64,000 bases of DNA from Actinomycetota bacterium (GTDB lineage Bacteria > Actinomycetota > Thermoleophilia > Solirubrobacterales > 70-9): assembly GCA_018268575.1 (NCBI GenBank), contig JAFDWF010000119.1:1-64000 (forward strand), given 5' to 3'. The notes beneath the pieces were generated by a model. That model searched no databases, had not been told where the DNA came from, and saw only the letters and a list, made by a program, of their open reading frames with translations. How positions within the stretch are numbered: the stretch's first letter is position 1; every line of letters starts with the position of its first letter. The position numbers and the translations under genes were made by a program. This document shows positions 12,666 to 61,940 of this stretch, in pieces.

Positions 12666-12667
12666 AA

Positions 12668-15450: not shown

Positions 15451-15457
15451 CTCTTTT

Positions 15458-32938: not shown

Positions 32939-32986
32939 GCCTGGATCGCACCCAGGAGGTCGGCGGTTCGAATCCGCCTAGCTCCA
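32939..32986 (+). repeat. Attachment core copy C (48 nt of tRNA-Ala 3' end)
   Basis: Identical to 15403-15450 of the tRNA gene, the longest of the three copies. It is not a complete tRNA. It separates modules II and III. Confidence 0.88.
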
Positions 32987-39943: not shown

Positions 39944-39995
39944 TCGAGCGAAGCTACAGGTCGTTTCGGCGGGAAGCCGGATAGGAGGATCGGGC

Positions 39996-44232: not shown

Positions 44233-44297
44233 ACGGCCAATGTAAACGCGTTGCGAGAGATTGACCGGTTCGTGGTTTGAACCGCCCCCGACAAATT

Positions 44298-44321
44298 GGG
44301 CACTAACGCGTTTGAGTGCCC
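44298..44321. repeat. GGGCAC-n12-GTGCCC inverted repeat (copy D)
   Basis: Third copy of the module right-end inverted repeat, with the same 12-bp spacing but a different spacer sequence, which supports selection on the arms. Confidence 0.7.
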
Positions 44322-44442
44322 AAATCCCCACATATCGGCCCATATCCACGCCTATCCGCGTTCCCGCGAGTGCTCCGGAGATGGGCCACAAACCGCATCA
44401 AAAAGCCAAATTCCAGGGGCAGGACGGCCACAGCCACCTTGT

Positions 44443-44484
44443 ATCGCACCCAGGAGGTCGGCGGTTCGAATCCGCCTAGCTCCA
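44443..44484 (+). repeat. Attachment core copy D (42 nt of tRNA-Ala 3' end)
   Basis: Identical to 15409-15450 of the tRNA gene. It is the rightmost copy and so the right boundary of the recognisable composite island (about 29 kb from the intact tRNA). Confidence 0.88.
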
Positions 44485-44550
44485 TCGCCTCGAAAGCCCT
44501 GCAAACGGGCCACTTCGGATTCCGGGGAGCCATTCGAACCGGCCACTAAA

Positions 44551-44590
44551 TCCCCCTCGTTTCAGGCACTCGTGCCTGAAACGAGGGGGA
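44551..44590. repeat. 40-bp near-perfect palindrome (copy D)
   Basis: Two perfect 19-bp arms flank a TC centre. The inner arms TTTCAGGCAC are identical to copy B. Position relative to the core (67 bp) also matches the other copies. Confidence 0.8.
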
Positions 44591-44873
44591 TATGCGGGGA
44601 ATATGCGCCGATTCCGACGGATTACGTCTGGCATAGGCGGCGCTACGGTCGGCGCGTTGGAACGTCGCCCGATCCTCGACAGGCCGGAGGTTGACGGACG
44701 ACGCAAGGGCGAAGTCAGGCGGCCCGACGGGGTGGTCGTGCTCCCCGTACTCCACGATCGGATCGGACAAGTTGAGTCGTCGGGGGCCCGCCGCGTTCTT
44801 CGGTTGGACCCTCCCCAGACATGCTGTTACATAGCCAGAACCAGGGCCGATCCGAGTAGCTACCCTTCACCGC

Positions 44874-46480
44874 TTGGCAATCCGACCGCAACAGATCGTC
44901 GTGGCCGGGGAGACCCAGCGCGCCGCAGCAATCGACGACACCGCGAGGGTGCGGGTCGTCGCCGGTCCGGGGACCGGCAAGTCGTTCACGATCGAGCAGC
45001 GGGTCTGCTGGCTCCTCGAGCAGGAGGTCGAGACCGGCGCGATCGCGGCGGTTTCCTTCACCCGAGCCTCGGCTCTGGACCTGCAGACGCGGGTGCATGC
45101 CGCCTGCGCGGCTGCCGGGCAAGACGGCGCCGATATCCGCGTCACGACCCTGCATTCACTGGCGCTGCGAAGCCTGCGCAAACGCGGGGTGCTCGGAGGC
45201 TATCCGGTCGATCCGGTCGTACTCGACCGGTGGGAGCTAGAGAACCTTTTCGACGATGAGTTCGGCCATCTTGCCGGGATCGGCGTCACCCGTCGGCGCG
45301 AGATCCGCGAGGACCACGAGGCCTTCTGGAGCACCGGCTCCCACGAGCCCCGCCCCTCTCCCAGGACCCGCCGGATCCTCCGATTACGAAAGAGGAGCGA
45401 ATCCGCTTCACGAACTTTCATGGGCCTCGGACCCAGTTCTACGCCTGCGTCCTGCCTGGCGAGTTGGTCCAGCGTTGCGTGGAGATGATGGACGCGGGCA
45501 CCCTCGACCCGGCCGGGCTGCTCGGCATCGAGCAACTGATCGTCGACGAGTTCCAGGACCTGAATCCGATGGACCTTCGCTTCGTCTACGGGATCGAGGC
45601 CCAGGGCGTCGGCCTCTTCATCGCAGGGGACGATGACCAGAGCCTTTACTCCTTCCGCTACGCGACCCCGACCGGGATTCAGGAGTTCACGAACCGCTTC
45701 GATCCCGTCGGTGACCACGTCTTGCGGGACTGCTTCCGCTGCACTCCGAAGGTGCTTCGCGCCGCGGAGACCCTGATCGCGGCCAACGCTGCGCCGGGGC
45801 GGATCGCCAAGAACCATGTCTCTCTCTACGCCGAGGCCGACCCGCCACTCGAGGCGACTTCGGCTGCTGGAGCTTTGACGACGGCGCCGAAGAGGCCGAG
45901 GCGATCGCTCTGTCCTGCAAGCGTCTGATCGACGCCGGTCTGCCGGCGCGGGAGATCATGGTCCTTCTCAGCAACCAGCGGGCGCTCTGGTGGGCACTCC
46001 GTGAGGCATTCGCCTTCCACGGGGTGCCGGTCGAGCCGCCTCGGGCCTCGCCGTTCAAGGACACCGAACTCGGACGCGCACTCTTCACCCTGCTCCGCTT
46101 GGTCAACGACGAGCCCGACTACGTGGCGATGCGCACGTTGCTAAAGTTGCGCCGCGGAGTCGGGGTCGCGACCGCGGCCGGCATCGCCGACGTCGCTATA
46201 GCCGAGAACCTCAACTACCGCGACCTCTTCTACGAGGCGCTGCCCGACGTCTTCAGCAAACGGCAGAAGGCTGCGCTGGACTCGGCGCGGGCCATCTGCG
46301 CGGAGCTACTCGAGTGGTCGGGAGAGGAGACGCTTGCCGATTGCGGCGAGGAGATCGGCGGGATGATCGAGACGATCCTCGGCCAAGCCCCGGACGGGGA
46401 CTGGCGCGAGGGAGATCATCGCCGCGCGCTCTGGCCGTGCCGGAGAGCCGCTGCGGAATGGCTCAGCGGCCATACATCCA
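44874..46480 (+). pseudogene. UvrD/Rep-like superfamily I helicase, frameshifted and truncated
   Basis: Three consecutive frames together read as one helicase. From TTG 44874: Walker A AGPGTGKS, motif Ia SFTRASALDLQTRV and TTLHSLALRSLRKRG. After a shift near 45347, IRFTNFHGPRTQFYACVLPG, motif II LIVDEFQDLNP and motif III GDDDQSLYSFRYA. After a second shift near 45850, GCWSFDDGAEEAEAIA, REIMVLLSNQRALWW and RTLLKLRRGVGV, fading out by about 46440-46480. The C-terminal motifs V-VI are missing. It lies just beyond attachment copy D and next to the divergent metabolic region, consistent with a decayed fourth module. Confidence 0.85.
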
Positions 46481-46582
46481 CATTGGGCAGCCGATTAGAA
46501 AAGCGCTTTCGAGGTATCTCAGCCGAGTCCAAACCAGGTTTCAGGACCAAAGAGGTTGCACAGGCTCGCGAACGGCTGAAGG

Positions 46583-48250
46583 CTACTTTCCGCTCAGGTC
46601 GGCTGCCCAGTGTTGGTAGGCCCAGGTCGGGATCACCGAGAGGCCGCCGAGGTCGTTGGACAGCGCGGTCAACTGTTTGATCCAGTAGAGGATCGACCAG
46701 GGCTGGTCGGCGACGATCTGGGACTGGATTTCGGTGAGCACCTTGGCCCTCGCCTTGCCGTCCATCATCCGGCTCTGCCGCTCGAGCAGCTTGTCGACCT
46801 GGGGGTTCTTGTATTCGGTGAAGTCGGAGATGGCGTTGGTCGAGAGGAAGGGGATGATCAGGTCGGAGGACGGGTCGGGCGTGTCCGAGCCCCAGTCCCA
46901 GCAGGCGATGCTCCACTGGCGCGGCGGCTTTTCGGGGAAGAGGAGGGCGATGAGTTCGTCGCCGCCGACTTTTTCGATGCTCAGGTTCAGGCCCAGTTCT
47001 TCGCCCTTGCTCTGGACCTCGGTCGCCTGGGCGACCTGCTCGGTAGAGGAGGCGATGATGTTGCCGGCGGCGCCTTTGGCCCCCGCTTCCTTGATCAGCT
47101 GCCGAGCTTTGTCGAGGTTCTGGGTGGTGAAATCCGGGAGCTGTTCGTAGGCGGCTTCGAACGACGGTTTCGCGAACTGCCACTGGTTGCTCATCACCGG
47201 GCTGTTCCACAGCTCCCCTTCGCCCGCGAAGGTCGACTGCAGGAGGCCGTTCTTGTCGATCGCCAGGCTGATCGCCTGCCGCACCCGCGGGTCGTCGAAC
47301 GGCGGCTTGCCGCAGTTGAAGCCGGCGATCCTGATGTTGACGGATTCGCTCGCCAGCACCTGGACCTTGCCGACCAGCGGCGTCACCTGCTGGCCGTTGA
47401 GCTGGAACGTGCCCTGGATCGATTCGCTGAGAATCCCGGTGGCGAGCGTCTCCGCGTCGGGGATCACGCGGAAGACGAGGTTCTTCACCTTGAGCGGCTT
47501 GCTCTTGTCCCAGTAGCCGTCGTAACGGCTCATGTTCACGGCCTGGCCGCGCTGCCAGGAGACGAACTTGTAGGGACCTGTCCCCAGCGGTAGGGCCGAC
47601 GGAGAGCCGATCGTGGATCCGCTCGCGGCGAGCTTTTCGATGTTCTTCTGTGAGACCACCATCCCGACCGGCAGGCAGGGGATGTACTTCCACATCGCGT
47701 TCGGTTCTTTCAGCTTTACGATCAGCTGGTTGTTGCCGTTCGTGGTGACCGCAGCGACCGAGGAGACGAATTCGGCGAGGGCGGATTCGTTGCGGGGGTC
47801 GACGTGGCGGTTGACGCTGTAGGCGACGTCCTCGACGGTCATCGGCGAGCCGTCCTGGAAGGTGACGTCGGAGCGGATGTCGTAGATGTAGGTCGTCGGA
47901 TCGGCCTGTTCCCACGATTCCGCGATCATCGGGCTGATCCCGTTCTGCTCGTTCAGCTGCAGGATCGTGTCGTAGCACTGGTACATCGGCTGGACGGACT
48001 GGTAATCGTTGGGCCCGATCGGATCGAGGCCGGCGGGGTCGGCGACGATCCCCCAGTTGACCGTGTCGACGGCTTTGCCGCCGCCCTTGGAGGCGCTCGT
48101 CGCGGTCGAGGCCGAATTAGAGCCGCCGCCGGTGCTGCTGCCGCAGCCGGCCAGCACCAGGGCGCCAAGCCCGCCTGCGACCAGCACCTCGCGTCGGGTC
48201 GCGCCTGCGGCGTGCGGGGCGGCCAACCGCCCAAGTCTGTCGAGCCTCAT
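46583..48250 (-). CDS. ABC transporter substrate-binding lipoprotein (family 5), Tat-type signal
   Basis: This 555-aa SBP_bac_5 protein has a signal region TRREVLVAGGLGALVLAGC that combines a twin-arginine motif with a lipobox (LAGC), then a Gly/Ser/Thr-rich linker. The mature protein shows WEQADPTTYIYDIRSDVTFQDG, DPRVRQAISLAIDK and a closing domain with NPQVDKLLERQSRM. ATG 48250. It is transcribed away from the catabolic operon starting near 48.4 kb. Its permeases are most likely those at 61941-63748 at the far end of that operon. Confidence 0.92.
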   Translation of the reverse strand: MRLDRLGRLAAPHAAGATRREVLVAGGLGALVLAGCGSSTGGGSNSASTATSASKGGGKAVDTVNWGIVADPAGLDPIGPNDYQSVQPMYQCYDTILQLNEQNGISPMIAESWEQADPTTYIYDIRSDVTFQDGSPMTVEDVAYSVNRHVDPRNESALAEFVSSVAAVTTNGNNQLIVKLKEPNAMWKYIPCLPVGMVVSQKNIEKLAASGSTIGSPSALPLGTGPYKFVSWQRGQAVNMSRYDGYWDKSKPLKVKNLVFRVIPDAETLATGILSESIQGTFQLNGQQVTPLVGKVQVLASESVNIRIAGFNCGKPPFDDPRVRQAISLAIDKNGLLQSTFAGEGELWNSPVMSNQWQFAKPSFEAAYEQLPDFTTQNLDKARQLIKEAGAKGAAGNIIASSTEQVAQATEVQSKGEELGLNLSIEKVGGDELIALLFPEKPPRQWSIACWDWGSDTPDPSSDLIIPFLSTNAISDFTEYKNPQVDKLLERQSRMMDGKARAKVLTEIQSQIVADQPWSILYWIKQLTALSNDLGGLSVIPTWAYQHWAADLSGK

Positions 48251-48303
48251 CTGCCAGTCCTCTCGGTACGGGATTTGAGTTGTGGACCGCGGGGGCGATC
48301 TGG

Positions 48304-48427
48304 GGTCACTATAACGATCAAGCTATACCTGGGTCAAATCGAATTTATGAGTTTTGGCTTCAAACAGGGAAATAGAGCGGTATATGGCTCGAGTTGTCAT
48401 GGGCCATGCTTTATCGATATAGTCACC
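48304..48427. promoter_or_regulatory. Inverted 13-bp pair flanking divergent promoter
   Basis: GGTCACTATAACG (48304-48316) and, inverted, GGTGACTATATCG (48415-48427) match at 11 of 13 positions, 98 bp apart, between the SBP gene and the operon to the right. Each contains a TATA(A/T)-like -10 word. They may be divergent promoters, or the two halves of a regulator-binding system. The right copy also contains ATCGAT, the centre of the operator at 13755. Confidence 0.45.
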
Positions 48428-50745
48428 CAGCAGTGAGAGATCACGCCGACAACCGAGCGCTGGACGTGGCCGAGGTCGACCGGCCCGGCCTTCGGCAAGC
48501 CGAGGCCGGCCGGCCTCGCGAACTCGCGCTCGGCTACTCGAGCCCCTTCGTCGCCCATCCCGGCGAATCGGTCCAGATCCACGTTGCCGCCGAGGCCCCG
48601 AGCTTCGAGGCCTCGGCGGTCCGGCTCGATACCGACGAGAGCCACCCTGGGCTTGAGCGGTTGTGGCCGCCGCGCAGGTGCGACGGCGAACCGTCACAGT
48701 CGACCTTCGGCTCCTCGCTGGAAGTCGGCCCCGCGAGGGCGTTCGGGGAGCCTTCCTCGTTCACGGTGTCCTTCTGGCTGTTGCCGACGCTGGCGACCGC
48801 GGTGCCGCAGGTGATCGCCGGCACGCTGACCGCGGACGGGCGCCGGGGCTGGCAGGTGGTGGTCGACCGCGACGGAGGTCTCGGCCTGCGCATCGCCGTC
48901 GCCGGGGTAGGGGTGGCAGAGCGTTTCGCGGAGCTGCCGTTGCCCCTCTCGGAGTGGAGCCATGGCGTGGTGGTCTGCGACGCCGACCGCGGTCGGGTCG
49001 GGTTCTTCCAGGGCTCGCGCTCGTCGACGGTGAGGTCGGTCTGGCGTGAGTTGGCACATGGTGAGTGGTCGTCCGGTGATCTGCTCGTGTTCGGCGCGCC
49101 GCACGGGCGCGGCAGGCGGGTCGAGCGGGACGGCAACGGCTGTCTGAACGGCAAGCTCGCCGAGCCCACCGTGTTCGCCGCCGCCATCGACCAGCAAGCG
49201 GTCGAGCGGCTTCGCGCGGCCGGGCCGGCGGCGGTCGATGCGCCGCTGGTCTGCCGGCTCGACCTCGCCGACGCGGTCGGGTCGGCCGAGTTCCGTGATC
49301 GCTCTCCCTATCACCACCCTGTCCGCGTTCGCAACGCCCCCACCGCCGGCGTCACCGGCCCGCGCTGGAGCGGTCGCGACTCGAGCTTCGTCCATGACCG
49401 CGAGGGTCACGCAGCGCTCCATTTCCACGACGACGACCTCGAGGACGCCGGCTGGGAGGTGGCCTTCGAGCTCGATATCCCGGCCGATCTCCCGAGCGGC
49501 GTCTACGCCGCTCGCCTGGAGACCGACGGGCACGTCGACCGGGTCCCGTTCATCGTCACGCCGCCTGGCGCCGAGCGAGGAGAGGGGATCGCCGTGCTGC
49601 TGCCGACGCTCACCTATCTCGCCTACGCGAACGAGCACGAGATCCTCTCCAACCCGCCCAGCTTCAAGGCGTTTACCGGCCGCGAGGCTGAGGAGGCGAA
49701 GCTGACCTGGCGCGACGCCTTCGTGGTCGAGGAGGGATACCTCAGCCTCTACGACGTACACCGCGACGGCTCTTCGGTCTGCTGCGCGTCCTCGCGTCGG
49801 CCGCTCCTCAACATGCGTCCGGACTACGTCTGGCCACTGATCGGCGGGCCGCACTGCCTGGGGATGGACCTCATGCTGCTCCGCTGGCTGCGTCGGGCGG
49901 GATTCCCGTACGACGTGCTCGCCGATCAAGATCTCGACCGCGACGGAGTCCTCGCGCTCGAGCCCTACCGGGTCGTGCTGACCGGAGCCCACCCCGAGTA
50001 CTGGACGGCGAAGATGCTCGACGGGCTGCAGGCCTACCTCGACCGCGGTGGCAGGCTGCTCTACCTCGGCGGCAACGGGCTCTGCTGGGTGACCGGGATC
50101 GATCCCGAGCGGCCGCACCTGGTCGAGGTGCGCCGCGGCCAGGCGGGCAGCCGCCCCTCGAGCTCGGCTCCCGGCGAGTCGTGGCTGACGACGACCGGCG
50201 AGGAGGGCGGGCTGTGGCGGCACCGCGGCCGCGGCTCCCACGGCCTGGTCGGGGTCGGGACGACGGCGATGGGCGCCGGTCGCGGCCGGCCCTACAAGCG
50301 CCGGCCGGCCAGCTACGAGGCGCCCTACGCGTGGGTCTTCGACGGCGTCGAAGGGGACGAGATCGGCGCCGAGGGCGGCGTCCTCGGCGGCGTCGCCGGC
50401 TACGAGTTCGATCGCGCCGATCCCGCCCTGGGGACGCCCGCCGAGGCGACCGTGATCGCCACCGCGAGCGGCTTCGCGGCGCCCTACTGTCCGCTGATCG
50501 AGGACTTCACCGGCTCCAGTCCGGAGCTTGCCGACGCCGGCAACCCGCTCGTCCGCGCCGACATGGTGATCTCGATCAGGGAGAACGGCGGCGGCGCCTT
50601 CGCCGCCGGGTCGGCGGCCTGGTGCGGCAGCCTGCTCGACGACGAGGGCGGGCCGACGGACGTCGCCACGGTCACCGGCAACGTCTTGAAGCGCTTCCTC
50701 GAGACGCCACGCGGCGCCGATCCGCTCGTGTGGGGGAGGGGCTAG
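48406..50745 (+). CDS. N,N-dimethylformamidase large-subunit-like protein
   Basis: This protein of about 779 aa has an N-terminal jelly-roll/concanavalin-like part (SSFTVSFWLLPTL, LVFGAPHGRG) and a C-terminal DMFase beta-subunit domain. The latter includes EGIAVLLPTLTYLAYANE, YDVLADQDLDRDGV, VVLTGAHPEYWTAKMLDGLQAYLDRGGRLLYLGGNG. DMFase uses a mononuclear iron held by Tyr and Glu to hydrolyse amides, and HPEYW contains the expected metal-site residues. The start could be TTG 48394, ATG 48406 or GTG 48433. It heads the operon with HyuA/HyuB, suggesting hydrolysis of an amide bond in the imported compound. Confidence 0.82.
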   Translation: MLYRYSHPAVRDHADNRALDVAEVDRPGLRQAEAGRPRELALGYSSPFVAHPGESVQIHVAAEAPSFEASAVRLDTDESHPGLERLWPPRRCDGEPSQSTFGSSLEVGPARAFGEPSSFTVSFWLLPTLATAVPQVIAGTLTADGRRGWQVVVDRDGGLGLRIAVAGVGVAERFAELPLPLSEWSHGVVVCDADRGRVGFFQGSRSSTVRSVWRELAHGEWSSGDLLVFGAPHGRGRRVERDGNGCLNGKLAEPTVFAAAIDQQAVERLRAAGPAAVDAPLVCRLDLADAVGSAEFRDRSPYHHPVRVRNAPTAGVTGPRWSGRDSSFVHDREGHAALHFHDDDLEDAGWEVAFELDIPADLPSGVYAARLETDGHVDRVPFIVTPPGAERGEGIAVLLPTLTYLAYANEHEILSNPPSFKAFTGREAEEAKLTWRDAFVVEEGYLSLYDVHRDGSSVCCASSRRPLLNMRPDYVWPLIGGPHCLGMDLMLLRWLRRAGFPYDVLADQDLDRDGVLALEPYRVVLTGAHPEYWTAKMLDGLQAYLDRGGRLLYLGGNGLCWVTGIDPERPHLVEVRRGQAGSRPSSSAPGESWLTTTGEEGGLWRHRGRGSHGLVGVGTTAMGAGRGRPYKRRPASYEAPYAWVFDGVEGDEIGAEGGVLGGVAGYEFDRADPALGTPAEATVIATASGFAAPYCPLIEDFTGSSPELADAGNPLVRADMVISIRENGGGAFAAGSAAWCGSLLDDEGGPTDVATVTGNVLKRFLETPRGADPLVWGRG

Positions 50746-50750
50746 ACATC

Positions 50751-52766
50751 ATGGGAGCTCGGCTCGGCATCGACACCGGCGGCACCTTCTGCGACTTCGT
50801 CCTGCTCGACGAGGAGGGGCAGATCCGTCGCGCCAAGGTCCCCTCGACGCCCTCGGACCCCTCCCGCGCGATCCGCGCCGGGCTCGACCAGCTCGGCCTC
50901 TCGCGGGCGCCGGCGCAGGCGACGGTCGGAACCACGATCGCCACCAACGCTGTGATCGAGCGCCGCGGGCCGCGCGTCCTCTATGTCGGCAACGAGGGCT
51001 TCACCGACGTCCCCTTCATCGGACGGCTCGACAAGGAACGTCTCTACGACCTCCACTGGCGCAAGCCGCGACCCCTGGTGAACCGGCGCGACTGCGTCGG
51101 CGTGGCCGGCCGGATCGACCACCACGGCGACGAGCTCGAGGAGGTCGGCAGCGCCGACCTCGCGCGGCTGGAGCGGTCGCTGCGGGAGCTCGGCGGCGCC
51201 GGCGAGGAGGTCGTGGTGGCGGTCTGCCTGCTCTTCTCCTACCTGAGCCCCGACCACGAGCGCCTGACGGCGGCGGCGGTCGAGGCCGCCTTGCCCGACG
51301 CCGCGATCTCGGTCTCGCACGAGGTCTCGCCGGTCTGGCGCGAGTACGAGCGCGCCAGCACGACGATCGCCGACGCCTTCGTCAAGCCGGTCGTCGGCGA
51401 TTACGTCGAGCGGGTGGGGCGCGAGCTCGGGGTCGAGCACTGGAACCTGCTCGCTTCCAACGGCGGCTTCCTGCGTGCCGCCGCCGCCGCGGCCGGCCCG
51501 GCGCAGCTACTCCTCTCCGGGCTTGCCGGCGGGGTCAGCGGCGCCCGCTACTTCGCCGCCGCCGCGGGCTTCGACTCGGCCTTCACGCTCGACATGGGCG
51601 GCACGAGCTGCGACATCGGGCTGATCGAGGACGGGGTCGAGCGCTACGCGCCGGAGTTCGACGTCGCCTTCGGGATCCCGGCGACGATCCCCTGCGTCTC
51701 GGTGCAGACGATCGGCGCCGGTGGCGGCTCGATCGCCTGGATCGACCGCGGCGGCCTGCTCCGGGTCGGGCCGCGCAGCGCCGGCGCCGAACCGGGCCCG
51801 ATCGCCTACGGCCGTGGCGGCAGCGAGCCGACGATCACCGATGCGCAGCTGGTGCTCGGCCGACTCAGTCCCGAGTACTTCCTCGGCGGCCGGATGGAGC
51901 TCGACCGCGAGGCGGCGCTCGCCGCCTACGCCGCGCTCGGCGAGGCGCTGGAGCTCGATGCCCACCAGGCCGCGCTGGCGGCGCTGATGATCGCCGACGA
52001 GGAGATGGCCAACGCGATCCGCCTCGTCGCTGTCGAGTATGGGCTCGACGCCCGCGAGTTCGCGCTCGTCGCCGCCGGCGGCGCCGGCCCGCTCCACGCC
52101 CGCTCGGTGGCCGCCCGCCTCGGGATCGAGACGATCCTGATTCCGCCGGCGCCCGGCCTCTGCTCGGCCTTCGGGGCGCTGATCGCGCCGCCCCGCGTCG
52201 ACCGGATCCAGACCTACTTCGCGAACTCCGAGAGCCTCGACCCGGTCGAGTTGATGGGCGCGATCGGGCGCCTCGCCGAGGACGCTCTCGCCGAGCTCGG
52301 CCGCAGCGTCGAACTGGCCGAGCCGGTGCTCGAGTGCTTCGCGTCGCTGCGCTACGCCGGCCAGAACTTCGAGCTCGAGGTCGAGGTCCCCGGCGCCGGC
52401 GACGGCTCCTGGGAGCAGCTACTGGAGAGCTTCGCGGCTGAGCACGAGCGGCAGTACGGGTTCGACCTCCCCGGCGAACCGGTCGAGGTCGTCAATCTGC
52501 GGGCCACCGCCCGCCAGGAGCAGGAGCCGCTGGCGCTTACCGATGCGCCCGGCGAGGCGGCGCCGGCCCGCTCCAGGTCCGTCTGGCTCGGCGGCGACGG
52601 ACCGAGCGAGGTCGCCGTCCGGCGCCGCTCCGAGCTCGCTGCCGGCGAGCGGGTGGAGGGCCCGGTGATCATCGAGGAGGACGACTCGACCACGGTCGCC
52701 TTCGCCGGCGACTCGATCGTCGTCGACCCCAGCGGAGTTCTCGTCCTGAGGATGGCCGAGCGATGA
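50751..52766 (+). CDS. hyuA: Hydantoinase/oxoprolinase A-type subunit (HyuA)
   Basis: This 671-aa ATP-dependent hydantoinase/5-oxoprolinase/acetone-carboxylase-type alpha subunit has N-terminal GIDTGGTFCDF (residues 6-15), GTTIATNAVIERRG, and the second actin-like phosphate-binding region DMGGTSCDIGL with QTIGAGGGSIAW. These use ATP to activate the amide or carbonyl of the substrate. It begins 5 bp after the DMFase-like gene and overlaps hyuB (ATGA). With HyuB it should open a lactam, hydantoin-like or oxoproline-like ring. Confidence 0.92.
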   Translation: MGARLGIDTGGTFCDFVLLDEEGQIRRAKVPSTPSDPSRAIRAGLDQLGLSRAPAQATVGTTIATNAVIERRGPRVLYVGNEGFTDVPFIGRLDKERLYDLHWRKPRPLVNRRDCVGVAGRIDHHGDELEEVGSADLARLERSLRELGGAGEEVVVAVCLLFSYLSPDHERLTAAAVEAALPDAAISVSHEVSPVWREYERASTTIADAFVKPVVGDYVERVGRELGVEHWNLLASNGGFLRAAAAAAGPAQLLLSGLAGGVSGARYFAAAAGFDSAFTLDMGGTSCDIGLIEDGVERYAPEFDVAFGIPATIPCVSVQTIGAGGGSIAWIDRGGLLRVGPRSAGAEPGPIAYGRGGSEPTITDAQLVLGRLSPEYFLGGRMELDREAALAAYAALGEALELDAHQAALAALMIADEEMANAIRLVAVEYGLDAREFALVAAGGAGPLHARSVAARLGIETILIPPAPGLCSAFGALIAPPRVDRIQTYFANSESLDPVELMGAIGRLAEDALAELGRSVELAEPVLECFASLRYAGQNFELEVEVPGAGDGSWEQLLESFAAEHERQYGFDLPGEPVEVVNLRATARQEQEPLALTDAPGEAAPARSRSVWLGGDGPSEVAVRRRSELAAGERVEGPVIIEEDDSTTVAFAGDSIVVDPSGVLVLRMAER

Positions 52767-54496
52767 GCGAGCGCCTCGAGCTGGACACGGTCGGCCTCCA
52801 CGTCCTCCACAACGCCCTCGCCAACATCGCCGCCGAGATGGCGCTGGTGATGATGAAGACCTCCTACTCGACGATCTTCAACGAGGGCCTCGACTTCTCC
52901 ACGGTCCTGCTCGACGCGCGCGGCAACCTGATCGCGGAGAAGAACTTCACCCCGTCGATGATGGGGGCGATCCCGAACACGGTCGCCTGGACCCTGGAGG
53001 AGTTCGGCGAGGAGTTCTTCGGCCCGGGTGACGTCGTGGTCCATAACGACCCCTACCGGGGCCAGTGCCATCTCCCGGAGCACATGATGATGAAGCCGAT
53101 CTTCCGCGACGGCGAGCTGATCGCCTTCTCAGGGGCGATCGGCCACGTCGCCGAGGTCGGCGGCAAGGCGCCCGGCAGCTTCGCCGCCGACGCCACCGAC
53201 GTCTACCAGGAGGGGCTGCGGCTGCCCCCGGTGAAGCTGCTGGAAGGCGGCGAGCACGTCGAGCAGGTGTGGCGGATCGTGCTCGCCAACCACCGCACCC
53301 CGACCAACACCTGGGGTGACTTCCACGCGATGATCGGCGCCCTCAACGTCGGTGAGCGGCGGCTGCTGGAGCTGGTGGGCCGCTACGGCACCGCCACCGT
53401 GACCGAGGGGGCGAGCCGCCTGATCGACTATTCCGAGAAGCGCCTGCGAGCGGAGATCGCGGACCTACCGGACGGCGCCTACGCGGCGGAGATGAGCGTC
53501 GAGGACGACGGCGTCAGCGCTGCTCCGTTCACGGTCCGGGCCGAGGTCGTGGTCCGGGGCGACGAGGTGATCGCCGATTTCACCGGGTCCAGCCCGCAGG
53601 TGCGGGGGCCGATGAACTGCACCTTCGTCGTCGCCCTCTCGGCGATCTACAACGCCGTCTTCTGCGTCACCGACCCCGACGCGCTGATCCCCCGCAACTC
53701 CGGCTGCTACCGGCCGGTGCGGATCATCGCCCCGGCCGGCAGCGTGGTCAACGTCGTCCACCCCGGGCCCTCGGTCGGCGGCAACACGGACCTGCAGCCG
53801 AAGCTGATCGACCTGCTGCTGGCGGCGCTCTCGCAGGCGGTGCCGGAGCGGGTCGCGGCCTCCAGCGGCGGCTCCAGCTCGAACCTGCTCTTCGGCGGCA
53901 CCCACCCCGAGACCGGGCGCTACTACTCGAATTACCACTTCGACGGGATGGGGGCCGGAGGCACCGCGCTGAAGGACGGCAACGACGCCGAGGTGACGCG
54001 TCACTCCAACTGCCGCAACACGCCGGTCGAGGTCTTCGAGCATCGCTATCCGCTGCTCACCCTCGACTACGGGATGGTCACCGACTCGGGCGGTGCGGGT
54101 CGCCACCGCGGCGGTTTGGCCACCACCAGGACCCTGCGCGTCCTCGCCCCCGAGATCACCTTCAGCGCCCTCTTCGACCGCTCCCGGATCGCCCCGACCG
54201 GCCTCTTCGACGGTCTTCCCGGCAAGGGCTCCGAGCTGCTCGTGCGCCGCGCCGGCGAGGCCGAGTTCAAGACCTTCCAGGAGGCCTTCGGCGTCGCCTC
54301 GCCGACCAAGTTCACGAACGTCGTCCTCCACCGCGGCGACGAGGTGCGGTACCGGACCCCCGGTGGCGGCGGCTTCGGCGATCCGCGGGAGCGCGACCCG
54401 GAGGCGCTGCGCGCCGATCTCGAGGACGCTTACATCAGCGCCGCAGCGGCCGAGCATGACTATCGCGGCGTCGATCCCGAAGCGGGGACCCGGTGA
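52763..54496 (+). CDS. hyuB: Hydantoinase/oxoprolinase B-type subunit (HyuB)
   Basis: This 577-aa beta subunit has DFSTVLLDARGNLIAEKNFTPSMMGAIP, VVHNDPYRGQCHLPEHMMMKPIF, TGSSPQVRGPMNCTF and the C-terminal TDSGGAGRHRGGLATTRTLRVL and GGGGFGDPRERDPEALR signatures of HyuB/AcxA-type subunits. It completes the ATP-dependent hydrolase with HyuA. Its stop overlaps the next small gene (GTGA). Confidence 0.92.
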   Translation: MSERLELDTVGLHVLHNALANIAAEMALVMMKTSYSTIFNEGLDFSTVLLDARGNLIAEKNFTPSMMGAIPNTVAWTLEEFGEEFFGPGDVVVHNDPYRGQCHLPEHMMMKPIFRDGELIAFSGAIGHVAEVGGKAPGSFAADATDVYQEGLRLPPVKLLEGGEHVEQVWRIVLANHRTPTNTWGDFHAMIGALNVGERRLLELVGRYGTATVTEGASRLIDYSEKRLRAEIADLPDGAYAAEMSVEDDGVSAAPFTVRAEVVVRGDEVIADFTGSSPQVRGPMNCTFVVALSAIYNAVFCVTDPDALIPRNSGCYRPVRIIAPAGSVVNVVHPGPSVGGNTDLQPKLIDLLLAALSQAVPERVAASSGGSSSNLLFGGTHPETGRYYSNYHFDGMGAGGTALKDGNDAEVTRHSNCRNTPVEVFEHRYPLLTLDYGMVTDSGGAGRHRGGLATTRTLRVLAPEITFSALFDRSRIAPTGLFDGLPGKGSELLVRRAGEAEFKTFQEAFGVASPTKFTNVVLHRGDEVRYRTPGGGGFGDPRERDPEALRADLEDAYISAAAAEHDYRGVDPEAGTR

Positions 54497-54699
54497 GTGG
54501 GAACTGGCAGCCCTTCGAGCGTAGCTGGCACGACACCGAGGTCGTCAACTGCGACGTCTGCGGTCGGCTGATCCCGACCCGCGCCTGGGTGTTCGACGGC
54601 GGCGAGGGGCAGCTGCGGGCCTGCTCGCCGGAGTGCGAGGAGCTCTACTTCTCCTACGTCGTGCCGCGCCACGGCGAGACTCCCGGGGGACGGCGATGA
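54493..54699 (+). CDS. Small zinc-ribbon protein (acetone carboxylase gamma-like)
   Basis: This 68-aa protein has two cysteine pairs, C-D-V-C and a later C-S-P-E-C, in NCDVCGRLIPTRAWVF followed by LRACSPECEELYFSY, giving a treble-clef or zinc-ribbon. It is translated from GTG overlapping the hyuB stop and overlaps the enolase start by 4 bp. By position it resembles the small third subunit (AcxC/ApcC type) found with HyuAB-like carboxylases. Direct homology is not certain. Confidence 0.65.
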   Translation: MSGNWQPFERSWHDTEVVNCDVCGRLIPTRAWVFDGGEGQLRACSPECEELYFSYVVPRHGETPGGRR

Positions 54700-55829
54700 T
54701 CGTCACCGCGGTCGAGGCGATCCAGCTGCGCCAGCCCGCCTCGCTCGACGCCTCGATCGCCGACGGCAGCCAGGATGCCCTGCTGGTGCGCGTCCACACC
54801 GACGCCGGCATCACCGGGATCGGCGAGGTCGACTCGCTCCCCCATGTGGTCAAGGCGGTGATCGAGGCGCCGGCGTCGCACGCGAACGCGACCGGGCTCG
54901 GGGCGCTGTTGGTCGGACTCGATCCGCTCGACCTCGAGACGGCGTGGCACCGGCTCTACGCCGGCTCGATCTACTACGGCCGCCGCGGTGCCGTCGTCCA
55001 CGCGCTCAGCGGGATCGAGATCGCGCTCTGGGACATCGCCGGCAAGGCCGCCGGCAAGCCGATCCACCAACTGCTCGGGCCGGTCCGGCGCGACCGCGTC
55101 AAGGCCTACGCCAGCACCCTGATGCCGGCGACCCCCGCGCAGGCGGCGAGCGTCGTCGAGGAGCAGCTCGGCGCCGGCTTCGGCGCGGTCAAGCTCGGCT
55201 GGGGGCCGTTCGGGCGCGACGCCGACCTCGACGTCGCCCTGGTCGAGGCGGCGCGGGCCGCCAGTGGGCCGGACTTCGACCTGATGCTCGACATCGGCAT
55301 GGGCTGGAGCGACGCCGAGGAGGCGATCGCCCGGGTCCGGCGGATGGAGGAGGCGCGGCCCTACTGGATCGAGGAGCCCTTCTTCCCGGATCAGTACGGG
55401 CTCTACGCGCGCCTCGCCGAAGCCGTCGGGACGCCGATCGCCGCGGGCGAGGAGGAGTCGACCCTGCTCGACTTCGAACGGCTGATCGACGCCGGCGGGG
55501 TCGGCGTCGTCCAGCCCGACGTCACCCGCGCCGGCGGCATCCGCGAGTGCCTGCGGATCGCCGCGAAAGCCCGCGAGCGCGGCCGCCGCTGCGTCCTCCA
55601 CTCCTGGAGCACCGGGATCATCAAGGCCGCCAGCCTGCACGTGCTGGCGGCGATGGAGGAGGTCGAGTACTTCGAGGATTGCGTCCAGACGACCGAGCTG
55701 AACGAGCGGCTCGTCACCGATCGCTTCCCGCTCGAGGACGGCTGCGTGCGGGTGCCGACCGGGCCGGGCCTGGGCATCGAGCTGGACGAGGAGGTCTTGG
55801 AGGAGTGCCGAGTGAAGGAGGATCGATGA
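54696..55829 (+). CDS. Enolase-superfamily sugar-acid dehydratase (mandelate racemase subgroup)
   Basis: This 377-aa enzyme has metal ligands D199, E226 and E252 (in LMLDIGMGW, IEEPFFPD and AGEEES), catalytic Lys166 in VKLGWG, and a His302/Asp275 dyad (HSWSTGI and QPDVTRAG). This is the mandelate-racemase layout for abstracting an alpha-proton from a carboxylate. In a context with KDG kinase and KDPG aldolase it most likely dehydrates an aldonate or aldarate to a 2-keto-3-deoxy acid. ATG 54696 overlaps the upstream gene; the open frame extends further upstream without conserved sequence. Confidence 0.88.
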   Translation: MIVTAVEAIQLRQPASLDASIADGSQDALLVRVHTDAGITGIGEVDSLPHVVKAVIEAPASHANATGLGALLVGLDPLDLETAWHRLYAGSIYYGRRGAVVHALSGIEIALWDIAGKAAGKPIHQLLGPVRRDRVKAYASTLMPATPAQAASVVEEQLGAGFGAVKLGWGPFGRDADLDVALVEAARAASGPDFDLMLDIGMGWSDAEEAIARVRRMEEARPYWIEEPFFPDQYGLYARLAEAVGTPIAAGEEESTLLDFERLIDAGGVGVVQPDVTRAGGIRECLRIAAKARERGRRCVLHSWSTGIIKAASLHVLAAMEEVEYFEDCVQTTELNERLVTDRFPLEDGCVRVPTGPGLGIELDEEVLEECRVKEDR

Positions 55830-56617
55830 GTGAAGGAAGCAACCGGGCTGGTCGCCTGGCGGGCAAGGCGGGGGTGGTGACGGGCGCCGCCGCCGGGTTG
55901 GGCCGCGCGGTCCTGCTCGAGGCCTGCGCCGAGGGCGCCGCCGTGGTCGCCTTCGACCGCGACGCCGAGGCGGGCGAGGCCGCCGTCGCCGAGGTGCGCG
56001 CGGCGGGCGGGACGGCCGTCTTCCAGGCCGGCGACGTCTCCCGTGAGGCCGATTGCGCCGCCGCGGTCAAGCGCAGCGTCGCCGAGTTCGGCGCCTGCGA
56101 CATCCTCGACAACAACGCCGGCGTGGCGATCGAGCTCTCGATCGAGGAGACCAGCGAGGAGCAGATCGACGGGATCCTCGCGGTCAATCTCAAGGGTGCC
56201 TTCTTTGCCTGCAAGCACGCGGTCCGGGCGATGCGCGAGGGCGGCGGCGGCGCGATCGTCAACACCGGGTCGATCGTCAGCGTCGTCGGCGACCCGGTGC
56301 TGCCGGTCTACGGGACGACCAAGACGGGGCTGCTGGGGCTGACCCGCTCGATCGCCGTCGACTACGCCGAGGACGGCATCCGCTGCAACGCGATCTGCCC
56401 CGGCGACATGTTGACGCCGATGCTGCAGCGCACCTTCGACAGCGCCCCCGACCCGGCGGCAAAACGGGCCGAGATGGAGAGCTTCTATCCGCTCAAGCGG
56501 ATCGCCGACCCGCGCGAGGCGGCGACCGCGGTCGTCTTCCTGCTCTCCGAGGACGCCTCCTTCGTCACCGGCGCCTCGCTCGTCGTCGACGGCGGGCTGA
56601 CGGCCAAGTGCTATTGA
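55826..56617 (+). CDS. Short-chain dehydrogenase/reductase
   Basis: This 263-aa classical SDR has the cofactor motif TGAAAGLG at 19-26, structural NNAG at 96-99, catalytic Ser149, Tyr162 and Lys166 (YGTTK), and a C-terminal FVTGASLVVDGGLTAK. Asp in VAFDRDAE after beta-2 suggests NAD+ preference. It overlaps the dehydratase gene. It probably oxidises a hydroxyl of the sugar acid, or of a 2-keto-3-deoxy intermediate. Confidence 0.9.
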   Translation: MSEGSNRAGRLAGKAGVVTGAAAGLGRAVLLEACAEGAAVVAFDRDAEAGEAAVAEVRAAGGTAVFQAGDVSREADCAAAVKRSVAEFGACDILDNNAGVAIELSIEETSEEQIDGILAVNLKGAFFACKHAVRAMREGGGGAIVNTGSIVSVVGDPVLPVYGTTKTGLLGLTRSIAVDYAEDGIRCNAICPGDMLTPMLQRTFDSAPDPAAKRAEMESFYPLKRIADPREAATAVVFLLSEDASFVTGASLVVDGGLTAKCY

Positions 56618-56618
56618 G

Positions 56619-57581
56619 ATGACGCCGCGGGTGGTCACTCTGGGAGAAGCGATGCTGCGGCTCTCTCCGCCCGCTCACGGGCGCCTGCGCTCTGCCTCCC
56701 AGCTCGACCTCCACGTCGCCGGCGCCGAGGCCAACGTCGCCGTCGCGCTCGCCGCGCTCGGGGTCGAGGCGGCGTTCGTCAGCGCCCTGCCGGCGACCCC
56801 GCTGGGGGACCGCGCCGCGGCCGACCTGGCGGCCGCCGGGGTCGACCTCGGCTTCCTCGACCGCCCGGCGGCCGGCCGCATCGGCCTCTTCTTCGTCGAG
56901 TTCGGGGCCGGTGCCCGACCGACGACGGTCTGGTACGACCGCTCGGGCTCGGCCTTCGCCCAGATGGAGCGCTACGACCCGGCGGCGCTCGACGGCGCTC
57001 GGCTCGCGGTCACCTCGGGGATCACCCTGGCGATCTCCGCCGCCGCCCGGCGCCTGGCCGAGGCTTTCGTCGCCGCTGCCCGCGAGCGCGGCGTCGAGGT
57101 CTGCGTCGACGTCAACTTCCGCGCGCGGCTCTCCTCCCCCGAACAGGCGCGCGAGCGCCTCGAGCCGATCCTGCGGCAGGCGCAGATCGTCGTCTGCTCG
57201 CGCCGCGACGCCAAGCTGGTCTTCGGGATCGCCGCCGCCGAGCGGGAGCTCGTCGCCGTGCAGCTCCGTGACCGCTTCGCCCCCGAGGCGGCGATCCTGG
57301 TGGTCACCGACGGGGTGAACGGCTGCGTCGGGCTCGCCGATGGGACCGCTTGCGCGCAGGCGGCGATCAAGACCGACCCGGTCGACCGGATCGGGGCCGG
57401 CGACGCCTTCCTCGCCGGCCTGCTCTGGGGCCGCCTCAGGGGCGAGCCGCTCCCCGCGGCACTGCGCTTCGCCGCCGCCCTGGGAGCGCTGAAGTGCACG
57501 GTCGAGGGGGACCAGGCGCTGTTCACGCCCGCCGAGGTCGAAGCGGCCGCGGCGGGCGAGCGGGCGGTGCTGGTCCGGTGA
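56619..57581 (+). CDS. kdgK: PfkB-family sugar kinase, 2-keto-3-deoxygluconate kinase-like
   Basis: This 320-aa ribokinase/PfkB protein begins VVTLGEAMLRLSPP, and AGAEANVAVALAALG is the first PfkB signature. The anion hole and catalytic base lie in RIGAGDAFLAGLLWG (Asp262). Placement directly before KDPG aldolase strongly favours KDG to KDPG phosphorylation. It is 1 bp after the SDR and overlaps the aldolase (GTGA). Confidence 0.88.
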   Translation: MTPRVVTLGEAMLRLSPPAHGRLRSASQLDLHVAGAEANVAVALAALGVEAAFVSALPATPLGDRAAADLAAAGVDLGFLDRPAAGRIGLFFVEFGAGARPTTVWYDRSGSAFAQMERYDPAALDGARLAVTSGITLAISAAARRLAEAFVAAARERGVEVCVDVNFRARLSSPEQARERLEPILRQAQIVVCSRRDAKLVFGIAAAERELVAVQLRDRFAPEAAILVVTDGVNGCVGLADGTACAQAAIKTDPVDRIGAGDAFLAGLLWGRLRGEPLPAALRFAAALGALKCTVEGDQALFTPAEVEAAAAGERAVLVR

Positions 57582-58216
57582 GCGCGGCGGCAACCGCGGC
57601 GGCGATCGAGCGCTCTCGGCTGATCGCGATCCTGCGGTCCGAATCGGCCGACGAGGGCCTGCGCGCCGCCGCGGCATTGGTCGCGGGCGGGGTCGAGGCG
57701 CTCGAGTTCAGCCTTGCCTCGCCGGCTGCTCTCGCGGCGCTGCAGATGGCGGTGGCGGAGCTCGGCAGCGTCGCCTCGCTCGGCGCTGGGACGGTGCTCA
57801 CCTCCGACGCCGCGCGCGCCGCGGTCGAGGCGGGAGCCGAGTTCCTCGTCTCGCCCAACGTCGACCCGTCGGTCGGCGCGGCAGCGCTCGAGCTCGACGT
57901 CCTCCACCTTCCCGGCGCGCTCACCCCGACCGAGGTCGCCGCCGCGCTCACCGGCGGCGCCCCGTTGGTCAAGCTCTTCCCCGCCGTCCGGCTGGGGCCG
58001 GGCTACGTGCGCGACCTGCTCGCTCCCTTCCCCGACCTGAAGCTGGTGCCGACAGGCGGCATCGACGCCGGCAACGCGGCCGCTTTCCTCTCCGCGGGGG
58101 CCGCCGCGGTCGCGGTCGGCGGCGCGCTCACCGCCGGCGACGCCGCGCCCGCCGCGGTCACCCGGCGGGCGCGCGATCTTGTCACCTCAATCCAAGCAGT
58201 CAGGAGAACGACGTGA
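57578..58216 (+). CDS. eda: KDPG (2-keto-3-deoxy-6-phosphogluconate) aldolase
   Basis: This 212-aa class I aldolase has RLIAILRSES with the conserved Arg, GGVEALEFSLASP with the Glu, GAGTVLTSDAA, VSPNVDPSV, the Schiff-base lysine K132 in APLVKLFPA, and PTGGIDAGN for phosphate binding. It cleaves KDPG to pyruvate and glyceraldehyde-3-phosphate. The GTG start overlaps the kinase stop, and its stop overlaps the next gene. Confidence 0.92.
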   Translation: MSAAATAAAIERSRLIAILRSESADEGLRAAAALVAGGVEALEFSLASPAALAALQMAVAELGSVASLGAGTVLTSDAARAAVEAGAEFLVSPNVDPSVGAAALELDVLHLPGALTPTEVAAALTGGAPLVKLFPAVRLGPGYVRDLLAPFPDLKLVPTGGIDAGNAAAFLSAGAAAVAVGGALTAGDAAPAAVTRRARDLVTSIQAVRRTT

Positions 58217-59130
58217 GACAGACCATAGGCGGGGTCCTCCCGGTCATCCCGACTCCGTTCCGGGACGGAGAGTTCGATCCGGAGAGCTTCCAGCGGCTTC
58301 TCGACCACATGCTCGACGACGTCGACGGCTATACCTTGCTGGGCAGCACCGGCGAGGCGCCCTCCTTGACCGTCGCCGAGCGGCTGGCGGTCGCCGAGGC
58401 GGCGATCGCGATGACCCCGGCCGGGAAGAAGGTTGTCGTCGGCGTCACCAGCACCTCGATCGCCGACACCGTCGAGCTGGCCCGCCACGCCGAGGCCCAC
58501 GGTGCCGCCGCGGTTCTCTGTGCCGCTCCGTTCTACTTCGAGAACACGCCCACCGGCCTACTCGCCTTCATGCGCGAGCTCGACGCGGCGATCGGGATCG
58601 AGCTTGTCCTCTACGACAATCCGGCGGCGACGAAGACGAAGATCGCCGCCGCCGACGTCGTCGCCTGGGCGACCGTGCTGGAGAACCTCTCGACCGTGAA
58701 GCTCACCGACCACGACCTCGACAAGGTGGCGATCTGGCACCAGGCCGGCCTCCGCGTCATCGGCGGCGACGACCCGATCCTCTTCGAGTACCTCGACGCC
58801 GGCGTCGACGGCACGATGATGATCGCGCCGGCGGTCTTCCCGGCCGCCTTCCGCGAGGTCTGGCAACGGGTCGGGCGCGGCGATCGCGAGGGTGCGTTCG
58901 ACGTCTTCTCGCGGGAGATCCTCCCGTTCGTCCACGTCTTCGGGATCGGCCGGGAGATCGCCACGACGAAGGCCCTGCTGGCCGACGTCGGGATCTTCGC
59001 CTCGGGTGAGACGAGGGCGCCGCTGGAGCCCGTCTCGACGCACCGGCGGGAGATCCTCAGGTACGCCTTCGACGCCGCGAACGGGGAGACCGAGCGACGG
59101 CTCGCGACCGCGGCAGGGGGCACCGTTTGA
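58213..59130 (+). CDS. DHDPS/NAL-family aldolase or dehydratase
   Basis: This 305-aa TIM-barrel enzyme of the dihydrodipicolinate synthase/N-acetylneuraminate lyase family has LLGSTGEAPSLT (residues 43-53), Tyr134 in LVLYDNP and Schiff-base Lys163 in STVKLTDHD. In a sugar-acid operon it is more likely a 2-keto-3-deoxy-sugar-acid aldolase or a 5-dehydro-4-deoxyglucarate dehydratase-like enzyme than a lysine-biosynthesis enzyme. The GTG start overlaps eda. Confidence 0.85.
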   Translation: MRQTIGGVLPVIPTPFRDGEFDPESFQRLLDHMLDDVDGYTLLGSTGEAPSLTVAERLAVAEAAIAMTPAGKKVVVGVTSTSIADTVELARHAEAHGAAAVLCAAPFYFENTPTGLLAFMRELDAAIGIELVLYDNPAATKTKIAAADVVAWATVLENLSTVKLTDHDLDKVAIWHQAGLRVIGGDDPILFEYLDAGVDGTMMIAPAVFPAAFREVWQRVGRGDREGAFDVFSREILPFVHVFGIGREIATTKALLADVGIFASGETRAPLEPVSTHRREILRYAFDAANGETERRLATAAGGTV

Positions 59131-60167
59131 GTCGTGCAGCCGATCCGAAGCGGCACAAGGCGACGATGCGCGACGTCGCCGAGCGCGCCGGCGTCTCGGT
59201 GCAGACGGTCTCCAACCTGGTCAACGGCCGCGAGCATGAGATGACCCTGGAGACCCGCGAGCGGGTCACCCAGGCGATGATCGTGCTCGACTACCGCCCC
59301 AACGCGACCGCGCGGGGACTGCGCTCCCAGCGCACCCGAGCGCTCGGCTTCCTCGTCCTCGACGACGACGCGAAGTTCCTCGCCGACCCGATGACCGACA
59401 TGATCATGGCGGGAGCCGGCGACGTCGCGCGGGAGAACGGCTATGGGATGCTGATCCAGTCCGAGCGCTTCAACGGGGCGGACGACCACCTGCTGCGGCC
59501 GCTGCGCGAAAGCCGTGTCGACGGGGTGCTCCTCTACCTCTCCGGCGAACCGAACATGCGCGCGGCGTTGATCCGCAGGGTGGTGGAGATGGGCTACCCG
59601 GGCGTGATCTTCGGCGAGTCGCCCGATGCTCAGCTGGCCTCGGTCACCGCCGCGAACTACGAAGGCGCGTTTCAGCTTGCCAGCCATCTGCTCGAGAAGG
59701 GGCACCGCCGGATCGCCTTCGCCGCGGCCCGCACCTCCTGGCCGCAGATCGAGGACCGCTACAGCGGCTACCGCGCGGCGCTGCAGCAGGCGGGGATCGA
59801 GCCGGCGCGCGAGCTGCAGCTCTTCCGCGGTCGCTGGGACGCCGCCGCCGGCGTCGAGCTCGCCGAGGCACTGCTCGACCTGCGCGAGCCTCCGACCGCG
59901 ATCATGGCCGCCAACGACCTGCTCGCCCTCGGGGTGATGCACGCCGCCCGGGCCCGCGGGCTGCAGGTGCCCGGCGACCTGGCGATCAGCGGCTTCAACG
60001 ACTTCGCCTTCTCCGCCTTCGTCGAGCCGTCGCTGACCACGGTCTCGCTGCCGGTCTACGACATGGGCCGGGCCGCCGCGATGGCACTCGTCGACCGTCT
60101 CGAGGGCTCCGAGGCAGTCGCGTCGCAGCAGTTCGAGGTCGAGGTGCTGCTGAGGGGCTCGACCTGA
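59127..60167 (+). CDS. LacI-family transcriptional regulator (operon-encoded)
   Basis: This 346-aa regulator has the HTH TMRDVAERAGVSVQTVSNLVNG starting at residue 13, hinge YRPNATARGLRS, and an effector-binding domain (LGFLVLDDD, VDGVLLYLSG, ISGFNDFAFSAF). Translation starts at TTG overlapping the aldolase stop. Unlike the regulator at 12712 it has no private operator beside it. It is therefore a candidate binder of the GAAACCGGTTTC sites or of the 48.3-kb promoter elements. Confidence 0.9.
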   Translation: MSRAADPKRHKATMRDVAERAGVSVQTVSNLVNGREHEMTLETRERVTQAMIVLDYRPNATARGLRSQRTRALGFLVLDDDAKFLADPMTDMIMAGAGDVARENGYGMLIQSERFNGADDHLLRPLRESRVDGVLLYLSGEPNMRAALIRRVVEMGYPGVIFGESPDAQLASVTAANYEGAFQLASHLLEKGHRRIAFAAARTSWPQIEDRYSGYRAALQQAGIEPARELQLFRGRWDAAAGVELAEALLDLREPPTAIMAANDLLALGVMHAARARGLQVPGDLAISGFNDFAFSAFVEPSLTTVSLPVYDMGRAAAMALVDRLEGSEAVASQQFEVEVLLRGST

Positions 60168-61906: not shown

Positions 61907-61940
61907 GGGGCGAGGCCGCGGGGCGAGCGAAGGGGAGACG

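What the first reader, a model, noticed from the sequence alone, without database searches (positions are those of the whole stretch)
44485..46582. Likely fourth, decayed module beyond the last core
Sequence right of copy D (palindrome, iterons, GATTCCGGGGAG and CATTCGAACCGGCC words) matches the left end of module II at copy B. A module left end outside the last core implies that another element once lay there. What remains is a UvrD-like helicase with two frameshifts and a lost C-terminus, ending at the metabolic region.
Basis: inference. Interest (0 to 1): 0.5.

Follow-up and report, generated by a model that had tools for sequence, protein, structure and literature searches.

The report
Broken cassette in a tRNA-site array
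The DNA after the fourth copy of a tRNA-gene fragment looks like the stump of one more inserted cassette, whose helicase gene is broken and cut short here but intact in a sister genome; it shows how cassettes stacked beside a tRNA gene decay, and is otherwise an ordinary island remnant.

Summary
The 130 bp right of core D match the left end of module II (88%), with palindrome, words and iterons at the same spacing. The helicase has two frame changes and stops matching after residue 512 of 671. That module also carries PD-lambda-2-like defence genes and a MazF-like toxin, and ends in another core. The rest of it was not found in this genome. The break is sharp: at 46411|46412 the helicase joins the tail of an xdhC gene, of which no other copy was found here.

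Corrections: no core lies near 46.5 kb, and D is not the last core. Beyond the window the same contig has two more degraded right ends with cores, at 65.77 and 71.91 kb. The 'metabolic region' (46.6-65.6 kb) is one 19-kb catabolic cluster between D and the next core; whether it was cargo of module IV or came later is open. Kind: a decayed element in a tandem tRNA-site accretion.

The parts
15378..15451 (+). tRNA-Ala (CGC) gene, integration target; its 3' part 15407-15450 is core A
   Evidence: ARAGORN, Rfam tRNA, core scan
15628..17064 (-). tyrosine recombinase, 478 aa, in module I; only PF00589 hit on this contig
   Evidence: conserved R, K, HxLR, H, Y positions in the alignment
26455..26498 (+). 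core B, with the left-end arm of module II to its right
32943..32986 (+). core C
44279..44440 (+). right-end arm of module III: GAACCG-N-TTGGGCAC and inverted repeat at -144 from the core
44441..44484 (+). core D (one substitution against A-C)
44485..44614 (+). left-end arm of module IV: CCCTGCAAACGGG 44497-44509, GATTCCGGGGAG 44518, CATTCGAACCGGCC 44531, palindrome 44562-44579, ATATGCG iterons 44590 and 44601
44874..46411 (+). UvrD-like helicase pseudogene: residues 1-512 of 671 in three frames, C-terminus missing
46412..46498 (+). tail of an xdhC (XdhC/CoxI family) gene fused to the helicase remnant; homology is clear to about 46480
46583..64000 (.). catabolic cluster (SBP_bac_5, DMFA2-like, hydantoinase A and B, SDR, DHDPS-like, LacI, amine oxidase, peptide ABC permeases and ATPases); continues to contig position 65578, followed by degraded right end and core E at contig 65747-65810

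Best explanation
[quoted passage not shown] Modules are framed by copies of a 44-nt core and carry arms: a right-end arm (AACCG-N-TTGGGCAC, inverted repeat near -144) and a left-end arm (CCCTGCAAACGGG, palindrome near +80, iterons). Inferred working: the intact-looking tyrosine recombinase beside the tRNA copy acts on the cores, with the arms as accessory protein sites, so that modules enter and leave singly or in groups. Module IV carried a UvrD-like helicase and, judging from its intact sister in G007, a PD-lambda-2-like abortive-infection set. It then decayed: a rearrangement inside the helicase gene joined codon 512 to the tail of an xdhC gene, and the rest of the module is gone. The frame changes look recent, since substitutions against the intact copy are still concentrated at third codon positions. 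A degraded right end and core (E) lies 19 kb on, behind a catabolic cluster, and another (F) at 71.9 kb. Shown: arms, core, homology to an intact module, frame changes in this assembly, breakpoint, no match to the remainder. Inferred: recombinase action, role of the arms, order of events. A guess of about one half: that E is the former right end of module IV.
For: Arm and core identity to B with controls. G007: 93% nt identity over window 44433-46411, intact 671-aa frame, core at the far end, PADLOC hits PD-Lambda-2_B and _C, PemK/MazF-like toxin and a sub-threshold HigB-like hit. Rest of that module in G000: besides the 121-nt overlap only a 34-nt 88% match. xdhC: the match begins at 46411 or 46412 in 5 of 7 xdhC loci compared; the tail is the only XdhC match of G000 at E <= 0.001. 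Substitutions in the helicase 7, 3, 25 at codon positions 1, 2, 3. Sequence-free palindrome count right of 41 cores: 12 of 16 palindromes lie at offsets 76-80, D's among them; left of cores an inverted repeat lies at -148 to -142 in 17 of 41, D's among them. Right-end motif: five places on the 86-kb contig, all + strand, at B, C, D, E and F; 3 in the window against 0.01 expected.
Against: No core directly follows the stump. E is 19 kb away, keeps 37 core bases before a MITE-like insert, and has lost nearly all of its right-end arm. Arm features are not general: 29 of 41 cores have no palindrome at +76 to +80 and 24 of 41 no inverted repeat near -145, and the strict right-end motif was found in none of the stretches of other genomes (2 hits in 1.50 Mb counted on both strands, both G000's own). 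Only one intact sister module was found. G000 is in 226 contigs, 87% complete, so the breakpoint and frame changes rest on one assembly. No excision or integration data. Serine recombinases and relaxases were not searched for.
Confidence: 0.87

Rival explanations
1. Assembly chimera: module IV is intact in the organism, and the contig wrongly joins its helicase to an unrelated chromosomal stretch at 46411|46412.
For: G000 is a fragmented, 87% complete assembly; the join is abrupt and within two genes.
Against: The missing module half is not found elsewhere in the assembly, nor is the rest of xdhC, although both could lie in the missing 13%. Another right end (E), in array orientation, lies on the far side of the joined stretch. 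The two frame changes are independent signs of decay.
Confidence: 0.07
2. Module IV is a 21.3-kb module from D to E whose real cargo is the 19-kb catabolic cluster; the helicase stub is only its eroded left part.
For: The cluster is tightly bounded by module remains: 171 bp after the helicase stub and about 170 bp before the right-end stub at E. The 46412-49600 stretch has no match over 186 nt in the 11 other genomes of the genus and their best DMFA2-like relatives are at most 46% identical, while the cluster is colinear at 75-77% nt identity in G036 of another genus. Dehalococcoides ssrA islands carry catabolic genes in the same kind of arrangement (PMC3146451, passages).
Against: GC3 of the cluster is 0.907, like the left chromosomal flank (0.908) and unlike modules I-III (0.68-0.70). 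An xdhC tail separates it from the helicase stub. G011 also has cores about 33 and 38 kb beyond a well-preserved one in DNA of high GC3, so lone cores in chromosome-like DNA occur without an evident module.
Confidence: 0.3
3. There never was a module IV: the left-end arm and helicase right of D are ancestral or were copied there by recombination between arms.
For: Arms B and D are 88% alike, so exchange between them is possible in principle.
Against: In G007 arm, helicase and a closing core occur together. The match of D's flank to G007 runs on through the helicase, far beyond the stretch shared with B. The helicase was found in 2 of 12 genus genomes only.
Confidence: 0.04

Closest known systems
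CIME / tandem accretion of integrative elements (review PMC5704250, passages seen; Pavlovic 2004 only as cited there)
   Same: Tandem elements at one gene's 3' end, most of them decayed, keeping att sites but lacking an integrase, next to an element that has one.
   Different: Here no conjugation or mobilisation genes were identified (not specifically searched), and module IV has lost its own right site. Excision was not tested.
Dehalococcoides ssrA genomic islands (PMC3146451, passages seen)
   Same: Series of direct repeats of an RNA gene's end within 100 kb downstream, islands with and without integration genes, catabolic cargo, some parts described there as possibly fixed by deletion and amelioration.
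   Different: Target is tmRNA and the recombinase there is of the CcrB type; here tRNA-Ala and a tyrosine recombinase.
PAISt of Streptomyces turgidiscabies (PMC4057263, outline and abstract seen)
   Same: Actinobacterial island excising in modules between internal and flanking repeats by a tyrosine recombinase; relatives fixed by erosion of recombinase and sites.
   Different: 8-bp palindromic site at the 3' end of bacA, not a tRNA core with arms; excision shown there, only inferred here.
PD-lambda-2 (PMC9519451, passages seen)
   Same: G007's sister module has a HigA-peptidase-like gene (PD-Lambda-2_B), a PD-Lambda-2_C-like gene and a small HigB-like gene next to B.
   Different: The first component is only a sub-threshold Pfam hit; the set is absent from the window's stump; a UvrD-like helicase is added.
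UvrD/PcrA/Rep helicases and GajB models
   Same: The intact protein scores with DNA helicase II, PcrA, Rep and GajB models.
   Different: Far below the NCBIfam cut-offs (180.5 bits against 965 for PRK11773); no GajA among the proteins scanned.

Membership tests
Module of this tRNA-Ala array | core at the left boundary with left-end arm (palindrome near +80, CCCTGCAAACGGG, iterons) | tested here: met
Module of this tRNA-Ala array | right-end arm and core closing the module | tested here: inconclusive
   none near 46.5 kb; degraded right end E at contig 65747-65810 may be it
Module of this tRNA-Ala array | intact counterpart between two cores in another genome | tested here: met
   G007:C7 78158 to 85635
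CIME (cis-mobilizable element) | no integrase gene of its own | tested here: met
   only PF00589 hit on the contig is at 15817-16266; serine recombinases not searched
CIME (cis-mobilizable element) | retains attL and attR | tested here: inconclusive
   left site present, right site doubtful (E)
CIME (cis-mobilizable element) | lost transfer genes; derives from an ICE or IME; can be mobilised in cis | not tested
   no relaxase search; mobilisation needs an experiment
PD-lambda-2 defence system (G007 module) | components B and C | tested here: met
   PADLOC E 2.2e-36 and 2.9e-32; not present in the window stump
PD-lambda-2 defence system (G007 module) | HigB-like component A | tested here: inconclusive
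   Pfam HigB-like E 0.0027, 18.6 bits against cut-off 27; PADLOC not run on it
Gabija | GajA next to GajB | tested here: inconclusive
   4 proteins of the G007 module scanned with PADLOC, no GajA; smaller ORFs not scanned
Integron | integron integrase IntI | tested here: not met
   TIGR02249 47.7 bits against cut-off 265; XerC model 56.2 against 335

The most novel reading that the evidence does not exclude
The array works like a slow integron for defence modules: one tRNA-proximal tyrosine recombinase serves many cassettes without a recombinase of their own that share standard att arms (inverted repeat near -144, palindrome near +80), are exchanged between species, and can also carry large catabolic clusters such as the 19-kb one between D and E.
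Probability: 0.22. Interest if true: 0.6.

Novelty: new member of a known kind. Interest (0 to 1): 0.33.

Why it matters
It extends the array beyond what the window shows: five module right ends on the contig, not three. It gives one clear case of module decay with an intact sister copy and a sharp breakpoint. And it warns that the neighbouring catabolic genes lie between cores and may belong to the island's history, not to its ancestral flank. It makes a simple test possible: which pairs of cores still recombine.

Tried and rejected
A core near 46.5 kb: none on either strand of the contig with up to 14 substitutions in 44. The metabolic region as plain ancestral right flank: 46412-49600 has no match longer than 186 nt in the 11 other genus genomes; the cluster is colinear in G036 of another genus, where 40 kb around it hold no tRNA. 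The remainder of the G007 module elsewhere in G000: not found. Filing the helicase as Gabija GajB: not done. The palindrome columns used a lax pattern with a high background (78% and 39% of random 200-mers), so they were replaced by the sequence-free count. The strict right-end motif as a marker across genomes failed: no hit in the fetched stretches of other genomes. Paper searches: Solirubrobacterales with genomic island, tRNA and integrase, none; defence island, tRNA gene, integrase-less, attachment site, cassette, four papers seen as a listing only; cis-mobilizable and accretion, 13 papers of which three were opened. No structure prediction was run.

Full report
Setting. The window is contig C21:1-64000 of an unnamed draft genome, 4.30 Mb in 226 contigs, 87% complete. 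A tRNA-Ala(CGC) gene lies at 15378-15451. Copies of its last 44 nt lie at 15407 (A), 26455 (B), 32943 (C) and 44441 (D, one substitution), all on the + strand. A tyrosine recombinase gene lies next to A (15628-17064, minus), and its R, K, H-x-L-R, H and Y positions are conserved in an alignment with three recombinases from other arrays (that these are the catalytic residues is recalled).

The observation. Right of D the sequence matches the right flank of B: 103 of 130 positions without gaps, against at most 52 for random 130-mers of the contig; 88% and E 3.9e-40 by BLAST. In a count that uses no sequence motif, 16 palindromes of 16 bp (at most one of eight pairs broken) were found within 200 bp right of 41 cores from this and other genomes; 12 of them, D's included, begin at offsets 76-80. 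Left of cores, an inverted repeat at -148 to -142 was found in 17 of 41, D's included, among 134 such repeats in all. So D has a right-end arm on its left and a left-end arm on its right, as a core between two modules should.

The helicase. Pieces of 44874-46411 match PF00580. Against the intact 671-aa G007 protein the window keeps residues 1-163, 159-329 and 322-512 in three frames at 97, 96 and 95% identity, with length changes of 2 and 1 bases near 45356 and 45853. Nothing after residue 512 remains. The 35 substitutions in the aligned helicase stretch fall 7, 3 and 25 on codon positions 1, 2 and 3, so both copies were under selection for most of the time since they parted. The frame changes are therefore recent, or errors of the assembly.

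The intact sister. G007:C7 has the same core and left arm, then the intact helicase; identity to the window is 93% from 44433 to 46411 and ends there. A scan of 84,980 named genomes returned a 100% match on a contig of the same length, JAFDWB010000016.1, Actinomycetota MAG SZAS-10, so G007 is very likely that MAG. The module runs from core 78158 to core 85635. It also encodes a HigA-like protein that PADLOC calls PD-Lambda-2_B, a PD-Lambda-2_C-like protein, an sce7726-family protein, a PemK/MazF-like toxin and a sub-threshold HigB-like protein. It has no PF00589 hit; the only one on that contig is at 32318-32857. In G000 the rest of this module gives only the overlap at the breakpoint and one 34-nt match. 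More distant relatives of the helicase occur in Solirubrobacter phytolaccae (62%) and in MAGs labelled Betaproteobacteria, Acidobacteria and Planctomycetota (51-58%), so it is a travelling gene; in the genus held here only 2 of 12 genomes have a close copy.

The breakpoint. At 46411|46412 the helicase match stops and a match to the end of xdhC begins: 79% over 68 nt to G003, starting at 46411 or 46412 in 5 of 7 xdhC loci compared. The G003 gene is XdhC by Pfam. G000 has no other XdhC match at E <= 0.001, so its xdhC seems to survive only as this tail. A further 84 bp of unknown origin follow before the first metabolic gene ends at 46583.

Beyond the window. The same contig continues to 85983. 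AACCG-N(8-16)-TTGGGCAC, which marks the right ends at B, C and D, occurs five times on the contig: at 26280, 32780, 44280, 65748 and 71821, all + strand; in the window 3 against 0.01 expected. The last two precede further cores. At E (core bases 65774-65810) the arm is cut down so that the core follows almost at once (4 nt to the probe used, against 143 at D), and the core is interrupted at CTAG by a MITE-like insert of about 140 bp with at least 12 other places in G000 in a list that was cut short. At F (71908-71951) the core has 9 of 44 positions changed. The strict motif was not found in the fetched stretches of other genomes, so it describes this array, not the whole genus.

The metabolic region. 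46590-65490 is colinear with one stretch of G036 (another genus) at 77% and 75% nt identity, where no tRNA was found in 40 kb around it. Its left 3.2 kb have no match over 186 nt in the 11 other genus genomes, and DMFA2-like relatives in 4 of those 11 reach at most 46% identity. Its GC3 (0.907) equals that of the left flank (0.908), while modules I-III are at 0.68-0.70. It is thus accessory by distribution but native in composition. I cannot decide between cargo of module IV, a later insertion, and chromosome brought next to the stump by the deletion. G011:C2 has a comparable picture: two lone cores about 33 and 38 kb beyond a well-preserved one, in DNA of mostly high GC3, one of them with the same MITE-like insert at the same place (96% over 56 nt).

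How it probably works. Recombination between cores by the tRNA-proximal recombinase, with arm-bound proteins setting direction, would let whole modules or runs of modules leave and enter; this is inferred from anatomy. Signs of exchange: the last 835 bp of module II match the right end of G007's helicase module at 86%, and the first 560 bp of module II match G008 at 82%. The stump still has a good left site (D), so modules I-III could leave as one circle by A x D; the stump itself has no good right partner, which is what fixes it in place.

Comparison and verdict. The closest published pictures are CIMEs and accretion (PMC5704250), the ssrA islands of Dehalococcoides (PMC3146451) and the modular PAISt (PMC4057263); passages or abstracts only were seen. 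The finding is a decayed member of a known kind. It is well supported and mildly interesting; the wider idea of an integron-like defence array deserves more but is not shown here.

Noticed in passing
contig C21:65747-65950 (L035:5747-5950), beyond the window: Degraded module right end plus 37 core bases, interrupted at CTAG by a MITE-like insert of about 140 bp that has at least 12 other places in G000; G011:C2:6278-6333 has the same core-insert junction at 96% over 56 nt.
   Followed up: partly
contig C21:70061-71951 (L035:10061-11951), beyond the window: Module-like block before core F: an inverted relative (83%) of the PIN toxin-antitoxin pair of module II and a GNAT protein; 70982-71878 is 86% identical to the stretch before a core in G006:C90.
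   Followed up: partly
32155-32986: Right end of module II is 86% identical over 835 bp to the right end of G007's helicase module and 78% to a stretch before a core in G011:C2: ends are shared between otherwise different modules.
   Followed up: no
1-15450: 1051-14877 matches G007:C25 at 87-92%, but the tRNA with 205 bp of upstream flank matches G007:C7: a break in synteny between about 14.9 and 15.25 kb, left of the array.
   Followed up: no
38858-42863: Module III carries a SIR2 plus HerA pair (PADLOC) beside a cytosine methylase: probable SIR2-HerA-type defence.
   Followed up: no
L045, L042, L037, L048 (other genomes of the genus): Other arrays at the same tRNA also show one PF00589 hit between the tRNA or first core and the next core: G002:C6:153492, G003:C146:13504, G007:C7:32318, G007:C55:59809; the G006:C90 array showed none.
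   Followed up: partly
L118:9941-16515: The Solirubrobacter phytolaccae helicase relative lies about 4.5 kb from a tRNA-His gene, next to a Schlafen AlbA-domain protein.
   Followed up: no
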